Source of the DNA: Verpa conica
Taxonomy: Eukaryota; Ascomycota; Pezizomycetes; Pezizales; Morchellaceae
Assembly: GCA_033030425.1 (NCBI GenBank)
Contig: JAUFSD010000017.1
Coordinates: forward strand, 1-64,000
DNA length: 64,000 nucleotides
Reading direction: 5' to 3'
Shown here: in pieces, positions 4,903 to 63,195 of the stretch
Layout of the letters: each line of letters begins with the position of its first letter
How positions within the stretch are numbered: the stretch's first letter is position 1
Program-made: the position numbers and the translations under genes
The notes under the pieces: generated by a model
Told to the model about the DNA's origin: nothing
The model's database searches: none
The model's input: only the letters and a program-made list of their open reading frames with translations

Positions 4903-7900
4903 CTAGCCAGTAAACATCAAGGTAAGACGTTTCAGGAGGCCCCAGCCCTCATCATCATCCCCGTGTTCTTTCTCAATATCACTCTCGATATTACCGTCCT
5001 TACTTTCCTCTTGCTTCAATCTCTTCTCCTTTCGTTCATCTATACCTCCCCTGTCTCCTTCATCCTCGTCCTCCTCGTCCTCTCCAGTGCGGTCTCTCTT
5101 TCTCTTGCAAAACACCACTTCGTTGGCCCTACTTGCGAGGGGAGTGCCACCTAGAGATCTTACACTCCCTGGAACTATCAAGTATTGTTCAGATGTACTG
5201 GTTCGGGATGAAGCCTCTACAACGCTGCTACAAGCACCATCATTTGAATAACCACTGGCCATATCCACTGCTCTCTCTGAGATAGACTTTCGCTGAGTAG
5301 CCCCAATCCTACTCTCTTCATGCTCCTTATTTGAAACATGTTTTTTGGTGTCAGTTTTCTCCGGAATGAAGGGGCCTGTACGGTAGTTTGTTAATACCAA
5401 ACAACCCTAATCAGCGCGGGGGTTGGGTTAATGACTCATACCTGGCGAGCGTCGCCACCAAGAGGTGCTAGAAACTACGCCGTGCTCTTCTAGCAGACTT
5501 ACAACGTCTAGGTGTCCTCCACTTCTCGCCAAACTCAAGGGGGATCGCCACAAGCGGTCAGTGGCCGAAATATCTGCTCCTCTGTTTAGCAAGGTCTGTA
5601 CAACGCTTCTATGCCCGGCAGCCGATGCAAAGTGAAGTGATGTCCAGGTAGACCTTGCTTTTGCCTCGATAGCTGCCCCACGGTTCAGCAGAGTCCGGAC
5701 ACTGTCCTCTCTACCACAGGCAGCAGCTTGCATCAGAGGAGTCGACCTATAAAGGCCCTTGGCATCGATATTTGCACCTGCGTCTAGCAAGGCCGTGATT
5801 ACATCGCAGCGACCTTGAATAGCTGCAATATGCAATGGCGTGTAGTTCTCTAGTTGCACTTCCGTATTTGCCTGTCGATGCAACAAGAGTTTACAAACCG
5901 ATATATTACCCAGAAGAGCAGCTTGCTGAAGTGGTGTTTGAGCGGCAATCCTACTCTGTACCTGAGGACCCCATACGGTCTGAATCTGTATCATTGTATC
6001 ACACTTTGCTTCAATTTCGGCACCTTGGTCCAGGAGAAATAGCACCATTTGCTCGTTCCCGGCCCTCACTGCATCATGTAGAGCCGTACTGTTGTCAAAT
6101 CTCCTCTGATCGATATCTGCACCTCGACTCAGCACGAGCCTAGCCACCCCTTCTCGACCGTTACTTGCAGCGATATGTAAAGCTGCCCACCCATCCTTAT
6201 TTCTTGCCTTGATGTCTGCTCCATGGTCTAATAGAATACCTGCTATCGTGGTTCGTCCAGGATTGGATGCAGAATGGAGGGATGTGCAGCCATCTACCGC
6301 AAGTGTGTCCACAATAGCGCCTCTATCCAACAAGAAGCGCACTATCGTCTCCTGGCCACCATGTGATGCGATGTGTAACGGTGTCCAGCCTTGGGGCCCC
6401 CTCCCATGTAGATTTGCTCCTCTGCTTAATAACACTTCCACCACTGCTTTGAATCCATTCTCTGCAGCCACATACAGAGGAGTCTTCCCATCGCTTGCTT
6501 TCGCTTCGATATTTACTCCAACATGTAATAGCTCTCTGACCGTCTCCTCACTTCCCTTGAGGCACGCTTGATGTAACGGTGTCTGTAATTCTTTGTTGGT
6601 GGCTTCCTTATCTCCACCACGGCTAAGCAATAAACGCACCACCTGATAATATCCACTGACTGCGGCAGAATGTAAGGAAGTGTTACCATCATTGCTTCTT
6701 ATGTCAACAATATCTGGCTTGCGATCTAGCAATGTTTTCACCACGAGCTCTTTTCCTTGGGACGCCGCTCGGTGCAAAGGCGTATATCCTCCATTCCGGA
6801 CCGGTGTCATAAATGCTCCCCTATCAATCAGAAGCCTGACGACCTCTTCGTGTCCGCCTTCACAAGCATAGTAGAGGGCTGTCGACCCGACATAGTTTGT
6901 TGCTTCGATTCTTGCCCCGTGGTCTAGCAAAAGACGTACAATTGCTTCGTGCCCTGTGGCTGATGCTGTGTGGAGTGGTGTTGCCCCGTTGTTTGCCGCT
7001 TTCTCGATCAACACCCCCTCCCCTAATAGCTTCTTCACCTTTTCAAGATATCCCTTATGACATGAGAGATGCAGCTCACTCCATCCATTCTGGATACTGA
7101 GGAGCTTTTCCTCTTCGCTGATAGACGCACTGGGAGCAAATCTTTTCAAGATTGTCTTAGTTGCTCGCTCACTGAGCTCCTTAATCTTGTCCCGAACCAT
7201 TGTATAGTCACTATCCATGATACTCTTAAACTTCACCATCTCCGAATGCGATGCTTCGATGGGATATTCGTTGAACAAAGGTTCGTTCGGTCTGCTACCG
7301 GTCGCTGACGACTTTGAGACCAAGACTTCCATTGGGCCGTTCATCTTCCACGTGATTCCATCATCCTGAACCTGTGAAAAAATCAGATACCGATTTAAGC
7401 CGTGAATTCTATTGAAACCGCGCAAGATTACCCACCCGAGCTGTATGTGATTCCTTAGTTTCCCAGAACGAAATGATTTCGGAATCCTTGAATTTGAAAC
7501 GGGCGCAGAAGTTTTGATGGAGCTTGTCCAGATGGTCGGATTCTGGTTTTAGAGCCTCTACAAGCCTACGATTTGGTTGACCATCGACCATGGGTAATAG
7601 GCTCTGGATTGAAAGTCCCCTATTCGGAACACCATACAACAGTAACCCTGCAGTTGATTTTAACACCTCCACAGCAGGCTCGACCCCCTCGTCTTCCCCT
7701 GCCAACGCAAGACACTACTCGAACGCATTATCAGTATAATTTTCACGTAGAGACGCGCCCAGACAGAATATTCTCAGAGCTTCAAGCTATATGCGGGGTG
7801 GGTCACCTCTTTAGCAACGAGACCTCCGAGACTATGACAGATGAACAAGAGCGGGCGATTCTTTGCCTGCCATCACATCAAGTATTAGTACCGATGATTA

Positions 7901-36415: not shown

Positions 36416-37345
36416 CTAGACCCCCAAGATCTCCCCGCCTTTCCTCTTAATCTCCTCCCTGTTCAGAAGCTCTGCCACCATCGTATGCCCACTCCTTATC
36501 GCAACATCTACTAGCAATACCCCTCCCTCTAGCTCCATCTCCGCCCCCCGATTCAAAAACTCCGCTGCTTCCTCCACTCTCCCATCCGCACAAGCCAACA
36601 TCAAAGGTGTTAACCCATCCTCATTAGCTGTGTTCAAATCACACCCGCTCTCCAGCAATATATTCACCATGTCATAGTTTTTATACCTCATCGCCAATAA
36701 CAATGGTGTGTCACCATCCCCATCCACCACAAGCACATCTGCCCCATGCGCCAACAAGACCTCTACGCACCTGGTATGGCCGTACTGCGCAGCGAGAGTC
36801 AAACAGCTACTGCGATGGCTGTTCCGCGCGTTCACGTCAGCGCCTGCGGACAGTAGCAGCTGTAGCATAGCTATGCGGCCGCGGCGGCACAGGTTAAATG
36901 TATTGGGCTCGTACCCGTACCCGTTAATATCTGGGCTTACACCATGCGAGAGGAGCAGCGATGCAATATCAAGATGATCTTTTCTGATAGCAGTCGGGAG
37001 GGTGATTTCACCATTGCCAGGGTCGACACCGTTAGCAATAAGGAACTTGGCGGCAGCAAGGCGGCCGTATTCACAGGCCATGCGAAAGGCAGCATTTGTG
37101 ATGTCAGAGGGGATAGTAGGGGGGTCGTGGGTGAATATTGTTGCGAGGAGGGAAGTCTGCTGATTCTTTGAGGCCCAGCAGATGGCGGGGAGGTCATCTT
37201 TGGGGGCCAAGGCGTGCTGGAGCATCTGGTATGAGAGACGGGAGTACAGGGATCGGCAAGCAAGTAGGAGGTTAGAGAGCGAGCTGGGAGGGAGGTTAGA
37301 GGCGACATCGGACAGGAGCTCGTTGGGGAGACTGAGGAGCGACAT
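36416..37345 (-). CDS. F-box and ankyrin-repeat protein, 309 aa
   Basis: An intronless ORF. The start is the ATG at 37345, since the open frame continues upstream only to a TTG. Residues 1-40 form an F-box (SLPNELLSDVASNLPPSSL, then LLLACRSLY), the motif that binds Skp1 in SCF ubiquitin ligases. About six ankyrin repeats follow (for example TAAFRMACEYGRLAAAKFLI-like, SSCLTLAAQYGHTRCVEVLL, DTPLLLAMRYKNYDMVNILL, LTPLMLACADGRVEEAAEFL), to about residue 295. The inferred role is a substrate-recruiting adaptor of an SCF ligase, with ankyrins binding the target. Genes of this class are often expanded in filamentous fungi. The coding region is GC-richer than its AT-rich flanks. Confidence 0.85.
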   Translation of the reverse strand: MSLLSLPNELLSDVASNLPPSSLSNLLLACRSLYSRLSYQMLQHALAPKDDLPAICWASKNQQTSLLATIFTHDPPTIPSDITNAAFRMACEYGRLAAAKFLIANGVDPGNGEITLPTAIRKDHLDIASLLLSHGVSPDINGYGYEPNTFNLCRRGRIAMLQLLLSAGADVNARNSHRSSCLTLAAQYGHTRCVEVLLAHGADVLVVDGDGDTPLLLAMRYKNYDMVNILLESGCDLNTANEDGLTPLMLACADGRVEEAAEFLNRGAEMELEGGVLLVDVAIRSGHTMVAELLNREEIKRKGGEILGV

Positions 37346-38892
37346 CGCAGGGGAATATTTGTCCAAGTGGGCCAATTCGATTGCGGTGTCATAGTCATAT
37401 ATGAGTCAGGGTTAGGTTTGCAAGGATCTTATGTCTGCTGTGTTCCGATTGGCTGCCTAATACTCGAGCTCTTGGGTAAAAGGTGTCTACTATTATACTC
37501 TTTGCACAAATAAAGGAATAATTTATACATTTGCCTATTTTTACGACGCAGGTTAGCCTGTCGTACGACAGAGAATAACAGTTTTCGAAACCCCATTAGG
37601 TATTACACGATAGGAATCTAGTAATTAGTAGATAGCAGAGGTCGCATTTCTTGGCCATTCTAGTCTAAAATATCAAAGTGAATCAAGGTATATTTAATCT
37701 AAGACCTATGGTAGTAACTACAGCTACAACCGTGCCTTGAAAATATTCAACTCCCCGCTCCCATCTTCATATTTACTAAGAGTACAAGCAACATACATAT
37801 CTAAGATATGACACCTAAACTATGATTCGCCTAAATTTTGGAATACCCTAGGTTCTATACGAGGGATGCGATCTCCATCGTTCGCAACGGGCACTTCTTG
37901 ACTTAATTAAGTGCATAGGGCCTCCAGGCTACAACTCATTCGGGGCGCTGAAGAGGAACAACGGTTGAAAAGGTTACAATCACTCGACCCTTTGATAAGC
38001 TAATAATCGCCCCAGGCTATATAAATAATCGATATATCCACACTTCAACACGACCATTCAAGTTTGCGGTCTACTTCTGAAATCCTATCTCCTAGATTGC
38101 TCTTCCTTGTTGAAACTAGTGAGGGGAGGTTTATTCTTACCCTTTGGGTCATTTCATTTATTCCGCTACTATGTGTTTATTTTTTTTTATTTTGTTTCTA
38201 ATTTCTTTCCGTAATGGTGTTTAGGCGTCTCGATAATCGAAACTAGCTAGAATCAACTATCAGATAGTGTAGATGACTCACTCGGAAACACTGTATAAAG
38301 AAAATTGTAACGTCCGGTAATCCTTATTGGGTTAGAATTGCCCTTCTCCTGGTAGATCAACTGTTTTATCTAATCCAACTCTCGGTTACGGCGCTACGCT
38401 ACTACAGCATACATAAATTACTCGGAATCTTCTCGTCTAATGTCAAGAATGCAAGAGCCTTATTGGGGCATTACTATGAATTGGTACTTTTTTATTTTTC
38501 AAGAGGGATGTTATGGTTAAGAATGCGCGGGGGCATTTTAAAAGTGTAGAGATTGGGCGGGATTAATAGAAACTTTCAACCCAGTACGTACTACTAATTC
38601 TTAAAGGATATTAGTTTATTTACTAATCATAGACATAGAGAAGTAAAGAACAGAAGAAGCGAGACAAAGGCACTGAGGGATGCACTAAATTGATTTGTAG
38701 ATATATTGAAGTCTAAATTAACTCCTATAAAAGACAGAACCATAGGAATTCATATTCCCCATAAAGGTCGAAGCATAGTTGCTAGCTAATATTCTTAGAG
38801 AAGAGACAAGAAATAACTAACAAACACCCCATTTAAGATTACACCAGAAAGGATAGATCCACCTCTCTCCATCAACCCACGCGCACCCATGA
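37346..38892. other. Intergenic upstream of the F-box gene
   Basis: AT-rich, no supported gene. Contains a lone copy of the 14-bp palindrome seen as an array at 1066-1976. Confidence 0.55.
37558..37571. repeat. Solo 14-bp palindrome
   Basis: CTGTCGTACGACAG is perfectly self-complementary and matches the array core at 1066-1976, including the outer C and G. It lies about 210 bp upstream of the F-box/ankyrin start codon, where a regulatory site could be. It may be chance. Confidence 0.4.
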
Positions 38893-48673: not shown

Positions 48674-48745
48674 CCTTGTTTTTCCCCTCTACTTTTTACA
48701 TACAAAATTATCTAAAATCATTATTCTTTAATACTCTTTTCTATA

Positions 48746-50647
48746 ATGGCTCCAAGAGCTCTTCGCTCCCGGAAACTGAATCAACCCTATACACTATCGA
48801 TCCCTAATAGTAGGGTACACTCTTCTGATATTGTGTTGAAAGCACAAAAGCCATCAAAAGTTCGGAAAATCTCGATCACCAAATATCACTCACACCCTAA
48901 AAATCCTTATCGGGTGCCAGTAAAGCCCAGTTTTTCGCAGGAAGACCTACCGAATACACCCTATTTCGAGCCTATTCATCATCCACAAGGTCTACATAAA
49001 GCCTATAATGTACTACCGCCTATATTGAGAGACCTTTCTGCTATTGAACCTATCCATATTGTTCAACTATTTCTTACAGATAAGCTTTTTGAGACAATGG
49101 CCATGAATACCAACCTCTATGCAGCGTATAAAAGGCAGAAATCGGTAGAAGAAGGACGTAGGAAGTGGGAGGAAGTGACAGCTAAAGAACTTAAATGTTG
49201 GATTGGGATTATTATTTATTTTGGCGTTTGCAATTTACCAGCTGTGAAGGATTACTGGCGCCATGATGGGCTTTGGCCTACTCATCACTTTAACACATAT
49301 ATGTCTCAGTCACGGTTTGAGAATATTCGAGCTTTCTTTCATCTTACCCCTCCTGATGCGCCAACTGCTAGCCCAACTGGGCGAAGACTGTGGCATCAAA
49401 AGGTAGATCCTTTGCTTGATCAGCTGCGATTTGCATCAAATCAGTATCGTGTACCCTCTTCCAACGTCTCAATTGATGAAGCAATAATACAACAAACCGG
49501 TCGATCCTCTGATACCTATAAAATTCCTCGAAAACCTATACCACAGGGTTTTAAATTTCACTGCCTTGCGGATCATGGCTATATGATTGACTTTCATCCT
49601 ACATCAAATCGATCCGGTGCCGATCCATTGCATGAACCTGAAACTGACACTTCATCATGCTTAAGTGAAACAAGCCGTGTTGTCCTAGACCTCGCTAAGC
49701 GATTACCCTATAAACGTCTAGCATTTAATATATATTTTGACAACTATTACACGAGTATACCAGTTCTCTCAGTGTTGCGTACCATGGGAATTGGTGGTTG
49801 TGGTACAGCTAGAACATCATCAAAAAATTTCCCTCCAGAGTTAGCAGTTCCTAAAACTGCTGCCATTGACTACCACCGAAAAGCGGGCATAGTAATAGAC
49901 AAGGTGGCTACTGTCCTATGGATGGATAATCGACCTGTCTCTATTATGACTACAGTCCATAAGCTTAAAGGCCGCAAATCTGATACTCTTCAGTGGAGAA
50001 AAAAACCTGGACCAAAAAGCTCAAACGCAGCAGGTATCAGAAAGGCACAGGTTTTTACCGAAAACGAATGGCAGAAACTACTCGATATCCCTCAATGTAT
50101 ACATGATTATAATCAATATATGGGAGGTGTAGATATTGCAGATCAATATAGATCTTACTACAGTACCCATCTTACCTCTTGGCGTACTTGGTATTCTCTA
50201 TTCCACTGGGGCATTGATACTTCTCTTACCAACTCATTCATTATATATAATGATATTCCTACTGTAGCTAAACGACAGCATAAAGCCTTTCTTATGGAGG
50301 TGGCTTGGGAATTTATCCTATGCGCAAAGGGTAATGATTGCAGTGTCAGAAAAAAAAACCCTACTCCTGAGCCGGTAACTGTCACTCCTCTATCAACCAA
50401 GTATTACCTCACGAAAAATCGGGGCCTACCAGCGTCTAATGGACATGGTATGCACATGCCTGCACATTTAAAAGGACGCAATGAGTGTATCCTATGTAGG
50501 TGGAAGGGGCGCAGTGGAGGAGGTGCAAGGACATCAGATACCAACAAAACCAGATGGCAATGCGCCACCTGTAATCATCCACTATGCCTAAATGATAAAA
50601 GGAACTGCTTTAAAGAGTACCATGAGATAGCAAGTAAATGTAATTAG
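48746..50647 (+). CDS. piggyBac-family transposase, 633 aa
   Basis: Uninterrupted ORF from the ATG at 48746. The region ELKCWIGIIIYFGVCNLP, then YWRHDGLWP, then MSQSRFENIRAFFHL is the conserved N-terminal part of the piggyBac DDE domain. The catalytic acidic residues are all present: Asp244 in VSIDEAI, Asp332 in YFDNYY, and Asp463 with Asp466 in GGVDIADQY. The C-terminus has a cysteine-rich zinc-binding domain (CILCRWKG..CATCNHPLC..CFKEYH). Size fits the family. No frameshift or stop is present, so the enzyme could be active. It lies within inverted repeats at 48480 and 50724 and should recognise them. Confidence 0.93.
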   Translation: MAPRALRSRKLNQPYTLSIPNSRVHSSDIVLKAQKPSKVRKISITKYHSHPKNPYRVPVKPSFSQEDLPNTPYFEPIHHPQGLHKAYNVLPPILRDLSAIEPIHIVQLFLTDKLFETMAMNTNLYAAYKRQKSVEEGRRKWEEVTAKELKCWIGIIIYFGVCNLPAVKDYWRHDGLWPTHHFNTYMSQSRFENIRAFFHLTPPDAPTASPTGRRLWHQKVDPLLDQLRFASNQYRVPSSNVSIDEAIIQQTGRSSDTYKIPRKPIPQGFKFHCLADHGYMIDFHPTSNRSGADPLHEPETDTSSCLSETSRVVLDLAKRLPYKRLAFNIYFDNYYTSIPVLSVLRTMGIGGCGTARTSSKNFPPELAVPKTAAIDYHRKAGIVIDKVATVLWMDNRPVSIMTTVHKLKGRKSDTLQWRKKPGPKSSNAAGIRKAQVFTENEWQKLLDIPQCIHDYNQYMGGVDIADQYRSYYSTHLTSWRTWYSLFHWGIDTSLTNSFIIYNDIPTVAKRQHKAFLMEVAWEFILCAKGNDCSVRKKNPTPEPVTVTPLSTKYYLTKNRGLPASNGHGMHMPAHLKGRNECILCRWKGRSGGGARTSDTNKTRWQCATCNHPLCLNDKRNCFKEYHEIASKCN

Positions 50648-50726: not shown

Positions 50727-51675
50727 AGCGTGGTCACTGATTCGATGTTTCGTAACACAAACCGACGGACCAAACGAGGTGACGATATTGCTAACTACTC
50801 TCCGAGGTCTAAAAGCTAATCATGAGTTGGTGACACCTTGCACCATTGCTAGCCTACATGCCAGCAGCCTATTTATCCCGCACTACCACAGAGAAGTCTT
50901 GCAAAGTGGACTAGGTGGGGAGTATTCGCCAAGACTAGAGATAAAGCTGTCTTGTCAAGTGGCATGCGCAGCACCAGCAGAAACGCCAGAGCATCGACCC
51001 AATGCCTAGTGCCTTCGGCAAAACTTTCCCGCCTTTAGCTTTGCAGTACCTAACCGAAAGGCTTTATCGCAACGACACGACACCATCCAAACTCCGCTGA
51101 AACATTGATAGAAACCTGAGGTATGGTCGGGAATCAGCAAGGCAGAAGCCACAAAAGAAGTACGTGGCATTTCAGCCTCATGGAGCACAACTCTTTTTCT
51201 CTTGTACTCGCTTTAGAAACTTCTCAACTAATCGACAATCACCCTCCGCCGCGATATTCGGACATCACTACAATTCAGATATTCTTTGACCGTAAAAATA
51301 CAAACAGGAGAAGTTAGGAGACAGTGTTATTAAATTCCGAGAGTCTCTGTAGCCGGGGAAGAGCTCCAGGGGCCAAACGTTAAACAAATCCATGACAGGT
51401 ACGCACAGCCACACAATAAAGCTCTCATCCTTCCCAGTATTTACAAACTTAAAACTGACAGGGGCGTTTAGGTTGCGAGCTGCTGTGTATACCGGGCGAA
51501 CACACGTCCGTTATTACCTCGAGAGGTATAGGTATGTTGTAGGATATTTTTCACATTTACACCTATGCTCTTCATCGCCTAGCCTAGGGCTTACCGATTA
51601 ACATATATCACGCAACCTTACTAATATTTATACGTAGAAAGCAATCAAGAGCCTGTTTTGGCCCTTTACTACGAG
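50727..51675. other. Spacer between transposon and membrane-ankyrin gene
   Basis: Contains a further partial copy of the transposon subterminal motif (CGGACCAAACG near 50766) just outside the element. Short frames at 50779-51317 on both strands look incidental. The right part is probably promoter and leader of the next gene. Confidence 0.5.
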
Positions 51676-54600
51676 ATGGAACGGCAGATAGCTTCCTATA
51701 GCTGTCGTGAGTTTTCATGTTTAATGCCGCCTTTGATTTTTAAGATGACTAATACATCATTAGATAAAGACTTCAACATGCAGAACCGAGACTTTGCTCC
51801 AGGAACCGAACACCGCTCAACAACCACTGTCATCGCCGGGTCCAAATTTCAAAAAACCGCAAAGCCATGCCTACTTCCATCAATAAATACTTGGTTCGCT
51901 GCTATGATATTCTCGCTTTCCCTCATACCCCCCGCACGAGCCGGTACCGGCGAGGACTTTGCAAACAACCTATTCAGCGACCTCGCACCCATTCTTGCCT
52001 TATTTGGAGAGCAAGTGGCGAAGCAGTTCATGAGCGAGTCGTCTGGGTGGGCAGACAATATACTCTTTGCTATGGCCCCGTTAGGTGTCATCACGGCGAT
52101 TGTGAGCGCAATCAGGGTGGCTGGACATCCATGGCTAAAGGGAATAGTCGGCCGGTCAAAAGAAGGTGAGGCTCAAGCTGAGCTGGAGTTGATGTCTTCA
52201 AACTCCCCAGATGTTGGCGAGATGTGGAACGGTCAGGCCATTATTCGTGTATTCGGTACCCCATCTATATTTCAATTTGTGTATTCGCCACATCATGTAG
52301 CCGCCAACCCGGCAGAGGCAATTGGCGTCCTAAACGACAAAAACCCCTTTTTCGAACGCCGTAGAAGAAACAAGGAAAGGAACAACCAATTGCCTAATTT
52401 CCAAGAACCCTGGAGTGACGATCTGGAGATCGAGATGCGGCCACTACTTAGAAACTCAAGGGACTCAGGCAATTCAACTCAAGCCAACGACTACAAGAGC
52501 CCACCAAATATCTCTCTTAACGCGAGAGGGGAAGCCATCGGCAACTTTGAGAAATGGCTCTTGGCAACTACCGGTGTAGTAGTCCAACTTGCGGTACTCA
52601 TATTTGAGGGTCTAATCTCGTATCATGCACCCTGGAAAACCAACTTTTTTAAGGATGGCTTGGCTCCGTCACCTCAAGCCTTTCCATTTACAGCTGCCGG
52701 AACCGTGTCTCTGAATATCGGTATGCTGATTTGCTCCTATGTCATCGACTGCGCTTCCACCGAGGAAGATTGGATGTTTAAATATAACAAGCAGTTGAGT
52801 GGCCGTCAAGATCATAGTGTCGCATGGGTACAGAAGGGAGGAACCGTAAACGATCAAACGTTTGAACCTTACCTCATCTTTGGTCATGAAGGCCAAAGGA
52901 TCATCAAAACATCACACCGTTGTAATAAAAAGACCAAACACCACCTCCGTTGGTGGGTTTTGCTAGGGACTATTGTGAGCATTGCCGGTTTCGTTACTCA
53001 GTTCATAGGCTTAAGGGGAATGCATTGGTCAGCTACCATTGCGCAACTAGCGGCTACAGGCTTTATGACAGTTGTACGGTCTTTTGTTCGTCGGCGCATG
53101 TTTCAGGAACCCAATGCTAAGCCGACTATTGAAGGCTATGAGCTCGATTCTATGGCGCGGAGAATAGCTCATTGCGATGGCTGGAAGGTAGTATCTGAGC
53201 ACCGAGGGAGTATTCCGCCCGAAAAAGATCAGGGGCTAGCAAAGAACGTGTTAGAGACCCGCAAGCGTCTTGGCGAGCTCTCACAGTGGCGTACAGAAGT
53301 TCAGGATATCAGTGCTTCATTGTGCATGGCCATCGAGCGGACTATGAATGCTATATATCATTTTGATAGTGGCTCTTTAACGGAAGCTGCCATAACACAG
53401 AAGGAGTTATGCTGGAAGTTAGGGGTACTTACACTTTGCCATGGAAACGACAAAAACCAAAGGTACGGAGAGTTGGAGTTTAAGATCGAGAGATCCCAAT
53501 CGTGGGGAACATGGGAAATCAGTGACGATACAAGACGTGACTTAGAGGCAGCTTTGTCACTAGGCATGTTGCACTTCAGAGAGCAAGAAAAATACCACCG
53601 AAAAACCGCTATCCTTTCCGGCGAGCAGAATGCTAGGAGGGACCATAACAAAAGTGCGAAGGTTCTTGTTTGGCCGAGTAATATGATTGATCAGGAGCTT
53701 TTTAGACTATGGGTAGGCTTCCATAAGTTAGATATTCAATTTGGATCTCCTGAGGGTATTGCACGGGCAGCGGAAATTCCAAAGTATAGGGTCATCGGAG
53801 AACTAGGCATAGGGGATTTTAGAGATTCTGCAACCGTTGCGATAACTCCGAATACGCCAATAGAGAAGATCTTTGCTCAACAAATCTTTTCAGTCTTCTT
53901 CTCGGAGGTGGTTACATTAATTAACAAAATTCCGAAGTCAGCCGAAATCCGTCCGGGTCCCCAAGGTGAACCAGACGAAGGATTGCAGAACGATACCTTG
54001 ACCCGCCTTGCGGGGGCAATATCTGAAACAGGACTTGGAACACAGACCGAAATACTTATGGGTGAGGCGCCCCTTATTCTGTTATCTCTATAGCTGGAAT
54101 AGGAATACTAAATTGTATATTTATAGATATTATATCGCAATTTGGGAAATATCAAAAACTTCCTGAGCCACAAGACGCGCTCGGAACCCGTGTATTGCGT
54201 TTGCATACTGAAAATAGCCAACGCCACGCTAGGATCAGGAACCATTGGCACATAGTTGCAATGCAAATTCATCAGTTGACCGGAGTCTACGAGTGGGAGC
54301 CGTCTCTGGGGGTTGAGCAACTTGAAGCGTGGAGTGCATGGCAGATGGCGACACGGTTTTATAAACGGATACTAGCCCTTGCAAGTCCCGGTAGTGTTGG
54401 GCCCAGCGAAAACCTCTATAATCCACAGAATGAATTTCTTGAATGGCTGAAAAATATCAACATCGATGATTTGCCACCTCTTCCTAGAGATATTCAGCAA
54501 CAAAACTGCGAACTTGCGGTCAGTGCATTAGGTTCTCTCGATACTGAAATGTTGACCAAAATTCAGCGCCTCCTAGCACCTTTCAGTCCAGTACACCGGG

Positions 54601-55982
54601 CATTAGAGGACGATAGAGAAATAGTTGTTCTTAGGAATATCATGGATATCACTACTCATAGGGACCTAGTACTAGTGCTAAAAGAGGCGGCAAGGAGTGG
54701 TTATGATTCTGTAGTCGAAGCGCTTATCGATCGTGAGATCGATACCAGACAGACCGATACTATTACGAAAAGTCCATTGCTCTTGGCAGCATCCCAAGGC
54801 CATGATTCAGTTGTCCAACTACTACTACGGCAGCTTGAGTTGCATTTCCCCAAAGACTACCGCCAGTTCCAAACTGGGTTATGCCCACTACCTCTGTGGA
54901 ACGCTACAGCATCTGGGCACATTTCAACCGTGCGACTAATTCTCGCGCATACAACAGAGGCAGTTGAGACGTCTTATAAACAGTGTGCTCTCGTTCTGGC
55001 TGCTGGAAAAGGTCATAAAGCCATAGTACAAGAGTTTCTCGACAATGGGACTAGTACTGATATCAACGTTGGACAGGTATTTGATGACGAGAAACTGTTA
55101 AAAAGGCTTAAGGAAGAAAGAGGGATAATAGCTCCGAGAACTGAAAATACCGCCGTCGAATTGAGTATAGAGTTGGAGTATCTAAAGTTGTTAACTAGGA
55201 CTCAGATGGATTATCAAGCCCTCACAACACACCTCCTGAAAAGTGGTGGTATCATTGCTATTCCACAATTAATCTTAACACGGACGGCCTTGCAAGCAGC
55301 TGTAGAAGGGGGCCATCTTGCAGTAGTAGATCAGCTGCTAAAACATGGAGCTAGTGTCAACGCAGAACCAGCATACTACAATGGACGAACAGCATTACAG
55401 GCAGCTACTGGAGGTGGTCACCTAGCTATAGTCAACCGCCTCTTAGAGGAGGGCGCTACAGTCAATGAGGAACCAGCAATGAACTGGGGGCGGACAGCTT
55501 TACAGGCAGCGGCAGAAGTAGGTGATCTGTCCATAGTGGACCGACTGATCGAAAAGGGGGCCACTATCAATGCAGAACCAGCAAGGGGATTTGGACAGAC
55601 AGCTCTGCAAGCAGCGGCAGGGGGTGGTCATCTCGCAGTAGTCGACCGACTGATTGAGAGAGGTGCTACTGTCAATGCGGAACCAGCAGATTACGGACGG
55701 ACAGCTCTACAAGCGGCGGCGGGGGGTGGTCATCTCGCAGTAGTCGACCGACTGATTGAGAGAGGTGCTACTGTCAATGTGGAACCAGCATCCTACAATG
55801 GACGGACAGCTTTGCAGGCGGCGGCGGAGGGTGGTCATCTCGCAGTAGTCGACCGACTGATTGAGAGAGGTGCTACTGTCAATGCGGAACCAGCAGATCA
55901 CGGACGGACAGCTTTGCAAGCGGCGGCAGGGGGTGGTCATCTCGCAGTAGTCGATCGATTGCGTAGCGCTGGTGCACGTTGA
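51676..55982 (+). CDS. Multi-pass membrane protein with C-terminal ankyrin repeats, ~1413 aa
   Basis: Exons 51676-54061 and 54127-55982 are joined across a 65-bp intron (GTGAGG..TTTATAG, branch ATACTAAAT). The join is in frame and links two otherwise separate ORFs. The first in-frame ATG is 51676; ATGs at 51724 and 51745 are alternatives. The N-terminal half contains the block SDLAPILALFGEQVAKQFMS and about six hydrophobic segments (near WFAAMIFSLSLIPPA, ILFAMAPLGVITAIVSAI, TTGVVVQLAVLIFEGLI, GTVSLNIGMLICSYVI, LLGTIVSIAGFVTQFIGL and ATIAQLAATGFMTVV). I recall this as a widespread, uncharacterised fungal family. The second exon carries degenerate ankyrins, then seven very similar terminal units ending RSAGAR. 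Likely role: a membrane-anchored receptor or scaffold, by inference. It is the nearest neighbour of the polymerase-helicase gene, on the same strand. Confidence 0.85.
55352..55979 (+). repeat. Near-identical tandem ankyrin-coding units (99-108 bp)
   Basis: The coding sequence of the last seven ankyrins is tandemly repetitive. A 55-nt block starting GGTGGTCATCTCGCAGTAGT is identical at 55623-55677, 55725-55779 and 55830-55884. Most differences fall in a short variable loop between units (ARGFGQ, ADYGR, ASYNGR, ADHGR), which also changes length. Earlier units are progressively more diverged. Confidence 0.85.
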
Positions 55983-57755: not shown

Positions 57756-60700
57756 ATGGGGGATAGACTGCTTCGGAACTTCAGCCACACTCTACAGACT
57801 TCAATACACCCCGATGACAGGGCATGGTCTTACTATGTTCCAAATCTCCCAAGAGATGCCACCACGAACTCGCATGGACTGGTCAAATTGGTCACCGTTG
57901 TCTCCACAAGAACGAGGCAGATTATCACCCTGCGCTTCGACAGAGCACCAGCAAATAGGATAATCGCGAGCGATCCATCTCACCGCTTTATCCTAATATC
58001 CTTTGCTGATTTCCGTTTACAATGTCCCAGAGGGCCGGGTCAGCCAGTAGGACCCCCTGATGCCCCTACAGAGCCGGCTACAACACGAGAATCGGGGGAT
58101 TACATAGTTCGTCTTCTTCGGTCTGGTATAGTCATCAATGGTATCCAATACAACTTTTACGGTCACAGCAATAGTCAACTCAAGTCAAAGACCTGCTTCC
58201 TATTCGCCGGAACCAAGGAGGAGATATCCCAGAAGATTGAATCCCTTGGCGACTTTGGAAAAATTAAAACAGTAGCAAAGAAGGCAAAACGTATCGGACT
58301 TTTGTTCTCGTCTGCAGATATGGCCATGGTACTAAACCCCGAACGCTGTGAAGATATCCCCGACATCCAAAACAAAGATTATATCTTCACCGATGGCTGT
58401 GGACTAATATCTCCACACTTGGCGTCCCAACTAGTCAAGCAAAGAAATATTACCTTCAGAAACCAAAGATATAGCCCATCGGTGTTCCAAATTAGGTATA
58501 GAGGATACAAAGGTGTACTTATGTTGGAGCCAGAACTCTCGGGTAAGACTTTGGTAAAGTTCCGAGACTCGATGAAGAAGTTCAAGGGAGGGGATGATCT
58601 TTCCTTCTCTGTAGTAGCATACTCAAAGGTATCCTAGGTCCTACTTAATTCCCCATATCAGGTCTTATTGTTGATTCATTGCCATAACAATAATATTTAG
58701 CCATACGTATTTGGAAATCTAAATGACGAAATAGTCCTACTCGTACATTCTCTCGGGATCTCTACAGAAACACTCCTCCGAAAACAAAGGGCACACTTCG
58801 ATTATCTCGAAAATGCGTCTTTAAACCCCCAGGCTGGATTTCTCTTCCTTACCTATCTCAACCGAACAGACCTCGCAGAGAAAATCCTTATGGAGGGCCT
58901 TGGCGCTGTCGCGCCAGAGATACGGAAACTCGTCAATGGCGAATATGCAAGAATGTTGAATAAGAGGGATGAGGAGAGATGTAGGATTTTAATCCCTAAG
59001 TCTAGGCTACTTTTCGGTGTGTGTGACTCTAAGGATGTCCTTAAAGATGGAGAATGCTTTGTAAAGATTACCCTCGAGGGTGATGGCCGTCCAATGACTG
59101 TGGCGAACGCCGAAGTGTTGGTTTCCCGGAACCCTTGTTTGCACCCTGGGGATATCCGGAAGTTCAAAGCAGTGTATAAGTCAGAGTTGCAGCATTTGGT
59201 AGACTGTATCGTTTTTCCAACCAAGGGAAAGAGATCTAGCGCAGACTTGATGTCTGGGGGTGACCTGGATGGAGATACATGTAGGCCCTACTCCAGTCAC
59301 CTCCCTGAGATATTCTTAAACTAATATTAAACCGACAAAGTCTTTGTTTGTTGGGATTCAGATCTAATTCCACCGTTCATGTCCCAGCCAGCAGAGTACC
59401 CTGGTGGTAGAGAACAGGTAAAGTTCGACAAGATCACGGACGACGACCGGCTTCAATTTTTTGCCAAATATACAAATGCATCACTAGGACGAGTCAAGAA
59501 TCTTTTTATTGACTGGGCAAGAGTAAAAGGCCCTATGAGCCCTGAGTGCCAACAGTTAAATCGGCTCTTTTCTTTATGCGTTGACGGGAATCGGGTTAGG
59601 GTTCCAACAACTTTAGAGAATCCACCAGCGCCAGATGCAAATACAACTCCTTTTATACTCGACATCCTACACCAAGATGCAAAACAATTCATTCAATCGC
59701 GTCAACAGCCAGCCCAGCAACTAGATGGCTATGACTTTGATGCGATAGAACTACTTCTTTCCCGCGATAACCTGGCAATTTCAGAATTCGAACTTATCCA
59801 AATGACCTATCGATGGTGCCGGCGGAATGGTGTAGCGCTAGAGGAATTCTTACATTTTTTCGATTTTAATATCTTAGGGGCAGAGGAGAAAACATGGGTG
59901 TTAAGTCAGCTACCACCGTCTGCCAGAAACCCGGCGCTGGTCATGAACTCCCTCTTACAGTCAAGTCTATTGCAAGAGTCAGAGCTATACCCACATAGGT
60001 TGCATTACCCTGGAATGCGATGGAAATGCATATTCAATTCAACAGAGGACCGACTAGGGACGTTTCTCGACAGAGTCGGTCGTGCCCTCTCTTTATTCCA
60101 CCGAAAGCTGATAATCTTCCGCGTTGACGAACGCCTTACAGTAGCTATATACGTTCCCCGCAAAATTGAACAGAATGAAGAGTCTCAAGTTGATGATAGT
60201 GTCCGACTATTTGCGTTTATGCATACTCACGATGGCTCAAACATGCATCGTCTCATGGTCCCTACAAAGAAAAATTACCGGCTCTTTGTTGATCATAGGT
60301 TGGTTTCCAATGCTCTAATAACACCCTCCGTTAGCTGATAAATTCCATAGTGTATTCCAATTATTCGAAAAAGACCGGCGAAACACCTTCGTCTTCATCA
60401 ATCGGTCTCAATCAGACGATAAGGCGTACCGAAGTCTAGAAGGGAAGGGGGAGAAGAGGAGAGGAAGGCAGGTAACGATTGACGCGGGGGTAAACTATGA
60501 CTTCCGCGCAAGTATTGCTCTAGATAAGTTCAGTAAGAACTTGCAGAGGCACATAGGCAGGGTTAATAGAAATGGTATTTTGGCCGCCGTGAGTGCCCTA
60601 TTTACAACATTACCTAGGTCTTTCGACCACTAATAACTGGATAGGAAATCCATGTAATCTCCAACAGAGATATCCGAGGGCAGCAACTACTCGACCTCTG

Positions 60701-63195
60701 GCTAGAACAAGTTGATACCAACGAAACACTTCCATTGTTTGAATCAAAAGCGAGAGAGTACACTATCCCCCATATTATGGAGGTTGATTGGTCTTTGGAG
60801 CCCCCACATCTCATCAAAGTTGTCAGAGATAAGGATTACTCTACATTGAAAGATTTCGAATCGGCTGAGACGTTCAGGGCTATTTTTTATTGGCTCTGGG
60901 AAAAAGATGAAAGGAGCCTTCTCGGAGAGATATTCAGCTACCTCCTTTCTCAGATGGCCCTGCTGGATTCCCCGCTTCAAAGCATCCCCCATCTTTTTGT
61001 AACGATGGTAGAGTTTCTGACTTTGGCACCTTACTTGGCAATCACCTTTGCAAAACTACATGAATGGAGGACTCTTCCCGAACCTATTGAGCAGAACCTA
61101 CATAAGTTTGCTCCGAAGCTATTAACAGCTTTGATAATTTCAGCAAATGAGGTAATGGAGTTTGTACTCCAGCCATTCGAGACAATAATCTCTAGTATAC
61201 GATATCTCCCTCTTGCGACATTCGGAGAATTGGTTGAAACGATTTCCCTTGCGGTCAGGTCCTCTGAAATAGCACTAGACCTCCTACTCCAATCACTTGA
61301 AGCTCAGGCTCTCCGAGTATGTGTCGACCGGCCAACAGCTATTAGTCATTTCGTCCGAAATGCGATAGGTATCGCGTTAGACCACATCGACGAAGCCAAT
61401 GACTCCTCGACGAAGGGAAAGTACTTTTTGGAGTTAAGACGGACTGATGACCCTTTAGTCGTTACGGCAACTCTTCGAATTGATGCACCGCTCTCGGATC
61501 AACCCCGGCTCGGTGACCATGTCAGACTGATCAGTGCGCAACCTCCAGCAAACTCGCCTATAAAGCGATCATACTCAATATCTGCCCTTGTTGAAAAATC
61601 CGTTCAGGGACATGCTACATTCCGATGCCTCCACCCACCTCCTTCATATGTCGAAGACTGTTCATGGAAATTGATAAACTGCGGGTCTTATGTCACTACC
61701 AAAACAATGTCGGAAGCGTTGGTTCAATTTGCGGTTGAGAAGGAGGAGTGTTGTGGCATATACGGGCTGCTCCTCGATATCCGCTCCGAAGCCGCCGAGG
61801 AGAACATCCTCCCTGAGCCCCCTCAAGAATACACCCCAAGCGAACGTCTCAACCCGAGCCAAAATGAGGCTGTTCTAGCTGCCATCTCTAGTCCTTTGAC
61901 ATGCCTGTGGGGCCCTCCAGGAACCGGCAAAACACACACAATTGTAGTTATTCTTCAGGAGCTCATTCATAGGTATCCTAATGATAGGATTCTTGTAGCA
62001 GCACCAACTCACAATGCAGTCGACAATGTGATGCAGAAGTATTTGGACAAGTGCAGAGCACAAGGAGAAGGAAGTATGGTGGGAATAGCCCTCCGAGTAT
62101 CCACAGATGTAAGTATAGTAAGCTCTATTTACCACCTCGTCCCCGGGGTTAATTCGATCATATTCCTAGGTGAGAAAAGTTGCCGAGAACCTGAAGAAAT
62201 ACACCTGCGACGCTATGGTCGGAAAAGACCTTCTTGAGAACCCTGATGCGCGCAAAAAGGCTCTTGCACGTCTCCAAGAGGCCCGTCTTGTTTTTACTAC
62301 CTGCGCTGGTGCTGGTCTAGGCCTTCTCCGCTCAGAATCCTTCGACATAGTTATTATTGACGAAGCATCCCAACAAACCGAGCCTACTTCTTTAATCCCG
62401 CTTGTTAAAGGGTGTTCTCGAGCCACTCTCGTTGGTGACCATGTCCAGCTTCGTGCAACGGTTCAGCGACACGCGGTCCTAGAAATGTTTGACGTTTCCC
62501 TCTTTGAACGGCTTTATAGGGAGCATTCAGGGCACGGGATGAAGAGGGTTATGCTGGATACACAGTACCGAATGCACCGGGATATCTGTGGGTTTAGCTC
62601 CAACGAATTTTACGATGGAAAACTTCAGACTGGAGTTCCGGATGATAATAGGCCACTCCCACTTTCCGAATTCGAATGGCCAACCAAAGCAGATGGCATA
62701 TCCAAAGCGAGAACAGTCTTCGTTCAGTGCTCTGAGAACGAAGACTTAGGCCAAAAGTCCAAGAGCAATCAGGCGCAAGCGAAGATCTGCTACGAAATTT
62801 GTAAAAAGCTTTCGACGCCTTTGGGTGGTGATGGAGACCAGCAGAGAGCCTTACCATCAATAGCCGTTCTGACACCGTATAGCCGGCAAGCGGAGTTACT
62901 CAAAAGAATGATCTCGGGGGTTGAGGTATCTAGTATTGACGGCTTCCAAGGCCGAGAAGCTGATATTGTTATCTTTGTCACAGTCAGATGCAATGTGCAT
63001 TATGAGCTTGGATTCTTGAAAGATATGAGAAGATTGAATGTTGCGTTGACGCGAGCAAAAACTGGGCTCATTGTTATTGGGGATAGGATCACATTGACAC
63101 ATTGTGATGATCCTGAGAGTGCAAGAGTTTGGAAAGAGCTTTTGGAGTCCCTAACTTCTATCGAGTGGGAGCTCCCGGAAGAAACGAGCAAATAG
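57756..63195 (+). CDS. RNA-dependent RNA polymerase fused to UPF1-like SF1 helicase, 1712 aa
   Basis: Exons are 57756-58628, 58701-59280, 59341-60298, 60351-60588, 60645-62108 and 62170-63195; introns are 72, 60, 52, 56 and 61 bp, all GT..AG and phase-consistent. Residues 1 to ~900 are a eukaryotic cell-type RdRP: DYIFTDGCGLISP, the GYKGVLML block, the catalytic loop SGGDLDGDTFF (Asp479, Asp481, Asp483) and IALDKFSKNLQRHIGRVNRN. A ~370-residue middle region follows. A superfamily 1 helicase fills ~1280-1712: WGPPGTGKT (Lys1312), APTHNAVDN, IIDEASQQTEP (Asp1435), VGDHVQLRATV, LDTQYRMH, DGFQGREADIV and LNVALTRAK. The end of the RdRP, the middle region and helicase motif I share exon 5. The ATG at 57756 is the first after an in-frame stop; the N-terminus is short for an RdRP. 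The inferred role is dsRNA synthesis coupled to RNA unwinding in RNA silencing. It is not a viral polymerase. Confidence 0.92.

What the first reader, a model, noticed from the sequence alone, without database searches (positions are those of the whole stretch)
57756..63195. One gene encodes an RNA-dependent RNA polymerase fused to a UPF1-like helicase
Six exons splice cleanly into a 1712-residue frame with an intact DLDGD polymerase site and intact SF1 helicase motifs. The polymerase C-terminus, linker and Walker A motif lie in one intron-free exon (60645-62108), so the fusion does not rest on a doubtful splice. In S. pombe, Rdp1 and helicase Hrr1 are separate subunits of the RDRC, and Neurospora SAD-1 and SAD-3 are analogous. 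The known Dictyostelium RdRP-helicase proteins have an N-terminal, Dicer-type helicase, a different layout. A C-terminal SF1 fusion would mean a one-protein RDRC-like machine.
Basis: partly seen in the sequence, partly recalled or inferred. Interest (0 to 1): 0.88.

Follow-up and report, generated by a model that had tools for sequence, protein, structure and literature searches.

The report
RNA copier joined to UPF1-like helicase
A fungal gene really does join an RNA-copying enzyme and a UPF1-like RNA motor in one protein, but the same fusion is widespread in filamentous fungi and mushrooms and already described in Fusarium; what seems new is a hidden third module, a TLDc-like domain, between the two enzymes.

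The parts
57756..58628 (+). exon 1, residues 1-291 (N terminus and first part of RdRP)
   Evidence: spliced model; Pfam RdRP
58701..59280 (+). exon 2, residues 292-484; holds DLDGD at residues 479-483
   Evidence: the motif is invariant in the 46-row alignment A2
59341..60298 (+). exon 3, residues 485-803: end of RdRP core, helices, and somewhat more than half of the TLDc-like domain
60351..60588 (+). exon 4, residues 804-883: most of the rest of the TLDc-like domain
   Evidence: family consensus
60645..62108 (+). exon 5, residues 884-1371: last TLDc-like strand (EIHVISNRD), helical repeat, 1B-like barrel, Walker A
62170..63195 (+). exon 6, residues 1372-1712 and stop: helicase motifs II-VI
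57954..59630 (+). RdRP domain (PF05183), about residues 67-581, introns 1 and 2 included
   Evidence: E 1.4e-116; plant RDR2 best in PDB by sequence
59940..60662 (+). TLDc-like domain, about residues 685-889, introns 3 and 4 included; under Pfam's cut-off
60804..61400 (+). helical module, about residues 937-1135
   Evidence: AlphaFold2 model of relative P0125, mapping
61413..61688 (+). beta-barrel in the place of UPF1 domain 1B, about residues 1140-1231
   Evidence: model of P0125; alignments to UPF1 begin at model residue 196-217, before the barrel
61854..63192 (+). SF1 helicase core (two RecA folds), residues 1287-1712, intron 5 included

Best explanation
This is the FgRdRp5-type protein of a filamentous ascomycete: one polypeptide with an RDR2-like RNA-dependent RNA polymerase, a TLDc-like domain, a helical module and a UPF1-type SF1B helicase. 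Shown here: gene structure, domain order, intact active sites, and conservation of both active sites in ascomycete and mushroom relatives. From print: the Fusarium orthologue contributes to exonic small RNAs. Inferred: it makes dsRNA from RNA templates for silencing. If the helicase walks 5' to 3' as UPF1 does (recalled), it moves opposite to the polymerase on a template; it would then strip proteins or structure from the template and deliver the polymerase to 3' ends for initiation. Alternatively it acts on the product strand, in the direction of synthesis. The TLDc-like domain would be a scaffold or docking module between the two engines.
For: Gene model and motifs. All 120 listed of 346 homologues of the window protein carry PF05183 and PF13086; by my count of the listing, 80 of 107 rows do. 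DLDGD is invariant in the 46 rows of A2 and GPPGTGK and DEASQ in the 46 rows of A1. RdRP tree: fused fungal rows 100/99, fused fungal plus environmental rows one side of a branch at 100/100 against plant RDR2/RDR6 and two own-genome RdRPs. Helicase half: NAM7/UPF1 E 9.7e-58, UPF1 and IGHMBP2 first in Foldseek and in Z. FgRdRp5 deletion: 5'-U small RNAs down about 32%, ascospore discharge 47.6% of wild type (PMC11237814 passages). The genome holds Piwi matches on four contigs and paired RNase III matches on three.
Confidence: 0.6

Rival explanations
1. A one-protein RDRC: the fused helicase replaces Hrr1/SAD-3 and the protein does alone what Rdp1 and Hrr1 do together.
For: The two kinds of activity in one chain; the Fusarium orthologue acts in small-RNA production.
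Against: Helicase nearest UPF1/NAM7 by sequence, ZNFX1 far lower; outside the ZNFX1 clade; separate ZNFX1-type loci L045-L048 and other RdRPs are in the genome. The AU test does not exclude a sister relation to ZNFX1 (p 0.42).
Confidence: 0.15
2. A polymerase for non-silencing RNA turnover: the UPF1-type motor brings the RdRP to mRNA or rRNA in a decay or surveillance route.
For: UPF1-type core; deletion of Fgrdrp5 lowers ribosome-biogenesis genes and the authors discuss NMD.
Against: No UPF2-binding zinc domain PF09416 in the window protein, while the genome's own UPF1 has it; ex-siRNAs do fall in the deletion.
Confidence: 0.2
3. Two neighbouring genes read as one.
For: No cDNA at hand.
Against: Exon 5 is one open frame across the linker and Walker A; one-chain relatives are collinear at 49-58% over almost the whole length.
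Confidence: 0.02

Closest known systems
FgRdRp5 / FGSG_09076 of Fusarium graminearum (P0076)
   Same: Similar length (1721 residues), order RdRP then SF1 helicase, 49% identity over 1736 alignment columns; same main Pfam domains
   Different: Published as DEAD-like helicase plus AAA; here the helicase is assigned to the UPF1-like SF1 group and a TLDc-like domain is proposed. Species differs.
S. pombe RDRC (Rdp1, Hrr1, Cid12)
   Same: RdRP plus helicase in RNA silencing
   Different: Separate subunits; Hrr1 is a ZNFX-1 orthologue, this helicase is outside that clade
UPF1/NAM7 and IGHMBP2 helicases
   Same: SF1B core and a barrel before RecA1
   Different: No PF09416 zinc domain and no listed match to PF18141 (UPF1 1B) or PF21138 (HCS1 1B), which the genome's own UPF1 and HCS1 loci have; fused to an RdRP
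Branchiostoma lanceolatum BL02069
   Same: RdRP with an additional AAA_12 domain (PMC6396948, figure legend)
   Different: Sequence not available here; whether it has the TLDc-like part is untested
TLDc domains (NCOA7, OXR1/OXR2, mEAK7, TBC1D24, Rtc5)
   Different: 10-14% identity in those alignments; below Pfam's cut-off; known TLDc proteins are not polymerases (recalled)
Dictyostelium RrpA/RrpB
   Same: RdRP with a helicase in one chain (recalled)
   Different: N-terminal Dicer-type helicase (recalled); here C-terminal SF1

Membership tests
FgRdRp5-type fungal RdRP-helicase | PF05183 RdRP with DbDGD | tested here: met
   DLDGD at 479
FgRdRp5-type fungal RdRP-helicase | C-terminal SF1 helicase core in the same chain | tested here: met
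   AAA_11 and AAA_12, motifs
FgRdRp5-type fungal RdRP-helicase | collinear similarity over the whole chain and one clade in both halves | tested here: met
   trees
FgRdRp5-type fungal RdRP-helicase | role in ex-siRNA production | not testable with these tools
   seen in print for F. graminearum (passages)
RDRC / Hrr1-SAD-3 helicases | helicase in the ZNFX1/Hrr1 clade | tested here: not met
   outside the ZNFX1 clade (100/100); PF25396 not listed; a sister relation is not excluded (AU p 0.42). No S. pombe Hrr1 or N. crassa SAD-3 sequence was in the tree; the class rests
RDRC / Hrr1-SAD-3 helicases | physical complex with Cid12 and RITS | not testable with these tools
   no interaction data
UPF1 (NMD) | UPF1-type SF1B helicase core | tested here: met
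   (fold from relative P0125)
UPF1 (NMD) | UPF2-binding zinc domain PF09416 | tested here: not met
   not listed (E up to 0.1); present in own UPF1 locus L039
UPF1 (NMD) | helicase half inside the UPF1 clade | tested here: not met
   UPF1 clade 100/100 without the fused rows; sister relation not excluded, AU p 0.21
Dictyostelium-type RdRP-helicase | N-terminal Dicer-type helicase (recalled) | tested here: not met
   helicase is C-terminal with AAA_11/AAA_12
TLDc | TLDc fold | tested here: met
TLDc | Pfam TLD gathering score (24.5 bits) | tested here: not met
   window 13.3 bits, E 0.082; best other member E 0.00043
TLDc | V-ATPase binding | not testable with these tools
   no data

The most novel reading that the evidence does not exclude
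The family is an ancient four-module silencing polymerase, RdRP + TLDc + helical module + UPF1-type helicase, that arose once before the split of ascomycete and mushroom lineages and perhaps before that of fungi and animals. Its hidden TLDc domain docks the polymerase to a partner (possibly the V-ATPase or endomembranes, as TLDc proteins do elsewhere), so that dsRNA synthesis is placed and driven in cis.
Probability: 0.3. Interest if true: 0.75.

Novelty: new member of a known kind. Interest (0 to 1): 0.5.

Why it matters
The fusion ties dsRNA synthesis to an RNA motor in one chain, so polymerase-helicase coupling in RNA silencing can be tested with one purified protein and single-residue mutants. 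Correcting the 'DEAD-like' label to UPF1-like SF1 gives a directional prediction. The TLDc-like domain, if real, is an unannotated module in a family present in many fungi and gives a handle (docking partner, cellular place) on why this RdRP lineage carries its own helicase.

Tried and rejected
Intron 4: my first donor and acceptor were rejected. Searches used sequence from that model, as did the window rows. The two models differ only at the exon 4/5 join (ten residues against eight). The RdRP tree was repeated with the corrected protein; the helicase tree was not (its slice lies downstream, in sequence common to both models).

Unfused RdRPs as nearest relatives: of nine RdRP-only hits that I inspected, eight leave the family sequence right after WGPPG in Walker A and end within about 50 residues. 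They look like gene models cut at an intron there, not unfused proteins; the ninth (P0306) ends earlier.

A Glomeromycete member: P0206 (Acaulospora) is 85% identical over 46% of its length to a Serendipita protein, so a contaminant is likely and I do not count it as a Glomeromycete.

Sister group of the helicase: not resolved. Held-together trees were not rejected for environmental fused rows (p 0.39), ZNFX1 (0.42) or UPF1 (0.21). Eight rows were dropped: six on or behind long branches and two short proteins (P0163, P0192) that had fallen inside the fused clade; the HCS1 row, also long, was kept; a human UPF1 segment was added. The first RdRP tree, with the QDE-1-type row, gave 80/73 for fungal plus environmental fused rows; that row was dropped for its long branch, and the support became 100/100.

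Fold ranking of the helicase: coronavirus nsp13 rows lie among the UPF1 rows in Z (25-28.5), above SEN1, DNA2, Aquarius and ZNFX1, and several UPF1 alignments have rmsd of 8-10. The UPF1 assignment therefore leans on sequence and on the Foldseek order.

TLDc by profile comparison: hhalign of the linker alignment against the two TLDc proteins of this genome gave scores of 19.3 (Oxr1-like alone; maximum of 60 column shuffles 17.0), 15.3 (both; 19.5) and 13.2 (Rtc5-like; 18.1), so nothing convincing. A PDB sequence search with the linker profile found no TLDc chain. The TLDc case rests on the fold match and the sub-threshold Pfam hits; the 34 members scanned are related to each other, so their hits are not independent. 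Thirty further regions were extracted, of which I passed 18 to the scan, chosen before any result.

Linker part B (helical module and barrel) shows no detectable sequence similarity between fungal and environmental fused proteins.

Typing of own-genome loci: L042 was called DNA2 from recall only; L045's Pfam ZNFX1 match (25.7 bits) is just under the cut-off (27), and L046-L048 were typed by BLAST to an algal ZNFX1 protein.

Full report
Observation. The region 57756-63195 encodes one protein. Exons 57756-58628, 58701-59280, 59341-60298, 60351-60588, 60645-62108 and 62170-63195 join to 1712 residues with no internal stop. The polymerase site DLDGD and helicase motifs I to VI are intact.

Not a chance join. 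346 proteins passed the threshold and 120 were shown; all 120 carry both PF05183 and PF13086, most at 44-58% identity over most of the chain. Names in the listing include Cudoniella, Glarea, Fusarium, Trichoderma, Aspergillus, Zymoseptoria and Ascobolus. A query with P0206 returned 107 proteins, of which 80 carry both domains by my count of the listing; most of these bear names of mushroom-forming fungi (class recalled) such as Auricularia, Rhizoctonia, Coprinopsis and Moniliophthora. Among 166 fetched proteins of at least 1550 residues with an xDGD motif, DLDGD is present in 166, a Walker A pattern in 149 and all five tested patterns in 123. Some misses may be cut or mis-spliced gene models: eight of nine RdRP-only mushroom models that I inspected leave the family sequence right after WGPPG in Walker A.

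Prior knowledge. The orthologue FgRdRp5 (FGSG_09076, P0076) was reported in 2015 with an RdRP domain plus DEAD-like helicase and AAA domains at the C terminus (PMC4515635, passage). A 2024 paper repeated this and deleted the gene: small RNAs on the antisense strand of exons fell from 27.3 to 18.91%, 5'-U reads of 21-25 nt by about 32%, and ascospore discharge was 47.6% of wild type (PMC11237814, passages). An amphioxus RdRP with AAA_12 appears in a figure legend (PMC6396948). The fusion itself is therefore already known.

Which polymerase. PDB sequences closest to the RdRP half are plant RDR2 (E 7.9e-65); QDE-1 is far weaker (1.9e-18). The genome has three further RdRP loci: C18 is QDE-1-like (E 1e-21), C7 carries PH_fung_RdRP, and C9 is a third. 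In the tree the fused RdRPs, fungal and environmental, stand apart from the C7 and C9 RdRPs and from plant RDR2 and RDR6 with 100/100. With the long QDE-1-type row included, the same split had 80/73.

How old. Two environmental proteins of unknown origin, P0307 and P0308, have the same order RdRP then AAA_11/AAA_12. Their RdRPs join the fused fungal side (100/100), and their linker matches the fungal TLDc-like stretch by hhalign (E 3.2e-13), while plant RDR6, an own-genome RdRP and reversed columns do not (E 0.039, 0.52, 0.21). The helicase tree neither shows nor rejects the pairing (p 0.39). One old origin is plausible but not proven; unfused animal and early fungal RdRPs were not at hand.

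Mechanism. Shown: domain order and intact sites. From print: the Fusarium orthologue supports ex-siRNA accumulation. UPF1 is highly processive while IGHMBP2 is not, and IGHMBP2 is cited as 5'-3' (PMC6138625, passages); the 5'-3' direction of UPF1 is recalled. Inferred: as the polymerase reads its template 3' to 5', a 5' to 3' motor on the same strand runs the other way, which fits clearing the template and bringing the polymerase to 3' ends; on the product strand it would run with synthesis. The TLDc-like domain would dock or brace.

Verdict. A real, intact, single-gene fusion and an ordinary member of a known but little-studied family.

Noticed in passing
48716-50647 (+): Open frame of 643 residues with PF13843 (DDE_Tnp_1_7 transposase, E 6.9e-57), about 7 kb upstream of the gene.
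   Followed up: no
5428-7548 (-), 36416-37405 (-), 54066-55982 (+): Three ankyrin-repeat open frames, the second with an F-box-like match; the 822-residue frame 51625-54093 (+) that overlaps the third has no Pfam family at E 0.001.
   Followed up: no
own genome C3:848944, C20:92356, C11:305785, C12:1534388 (L045-L048): Four ZNFX1/NFX1-type helicase loci (and a weaker fifth, L050), an expansion of the class that holds Hrr1 and SAD-3.
   Followed up: partly
P0297, P0299-P0305: Public RdRP-only gene models of mushrooms leave the family sequence right after WGPPG, probably an intron within Walker A misread by gene prediction.
   Followed up: partly
P0206 (Acaulospora colombiana): 85% identical over 46% of its length to a Serendipita vermifera protein; the Acaulospora assembly probably holds Serendipita DNA.
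   Followed up: no
P0020, P0117 (Venturia): Members of this family are named 'Methylisocitrate lyase' in public databases; others are named PhoH-like or NAM7.
   Followed up: no
P0308, residues 4-182: Environmental fused protein with an extra N-terminal AAA_28 domain (E 4.6e-18).
   Followed up: no
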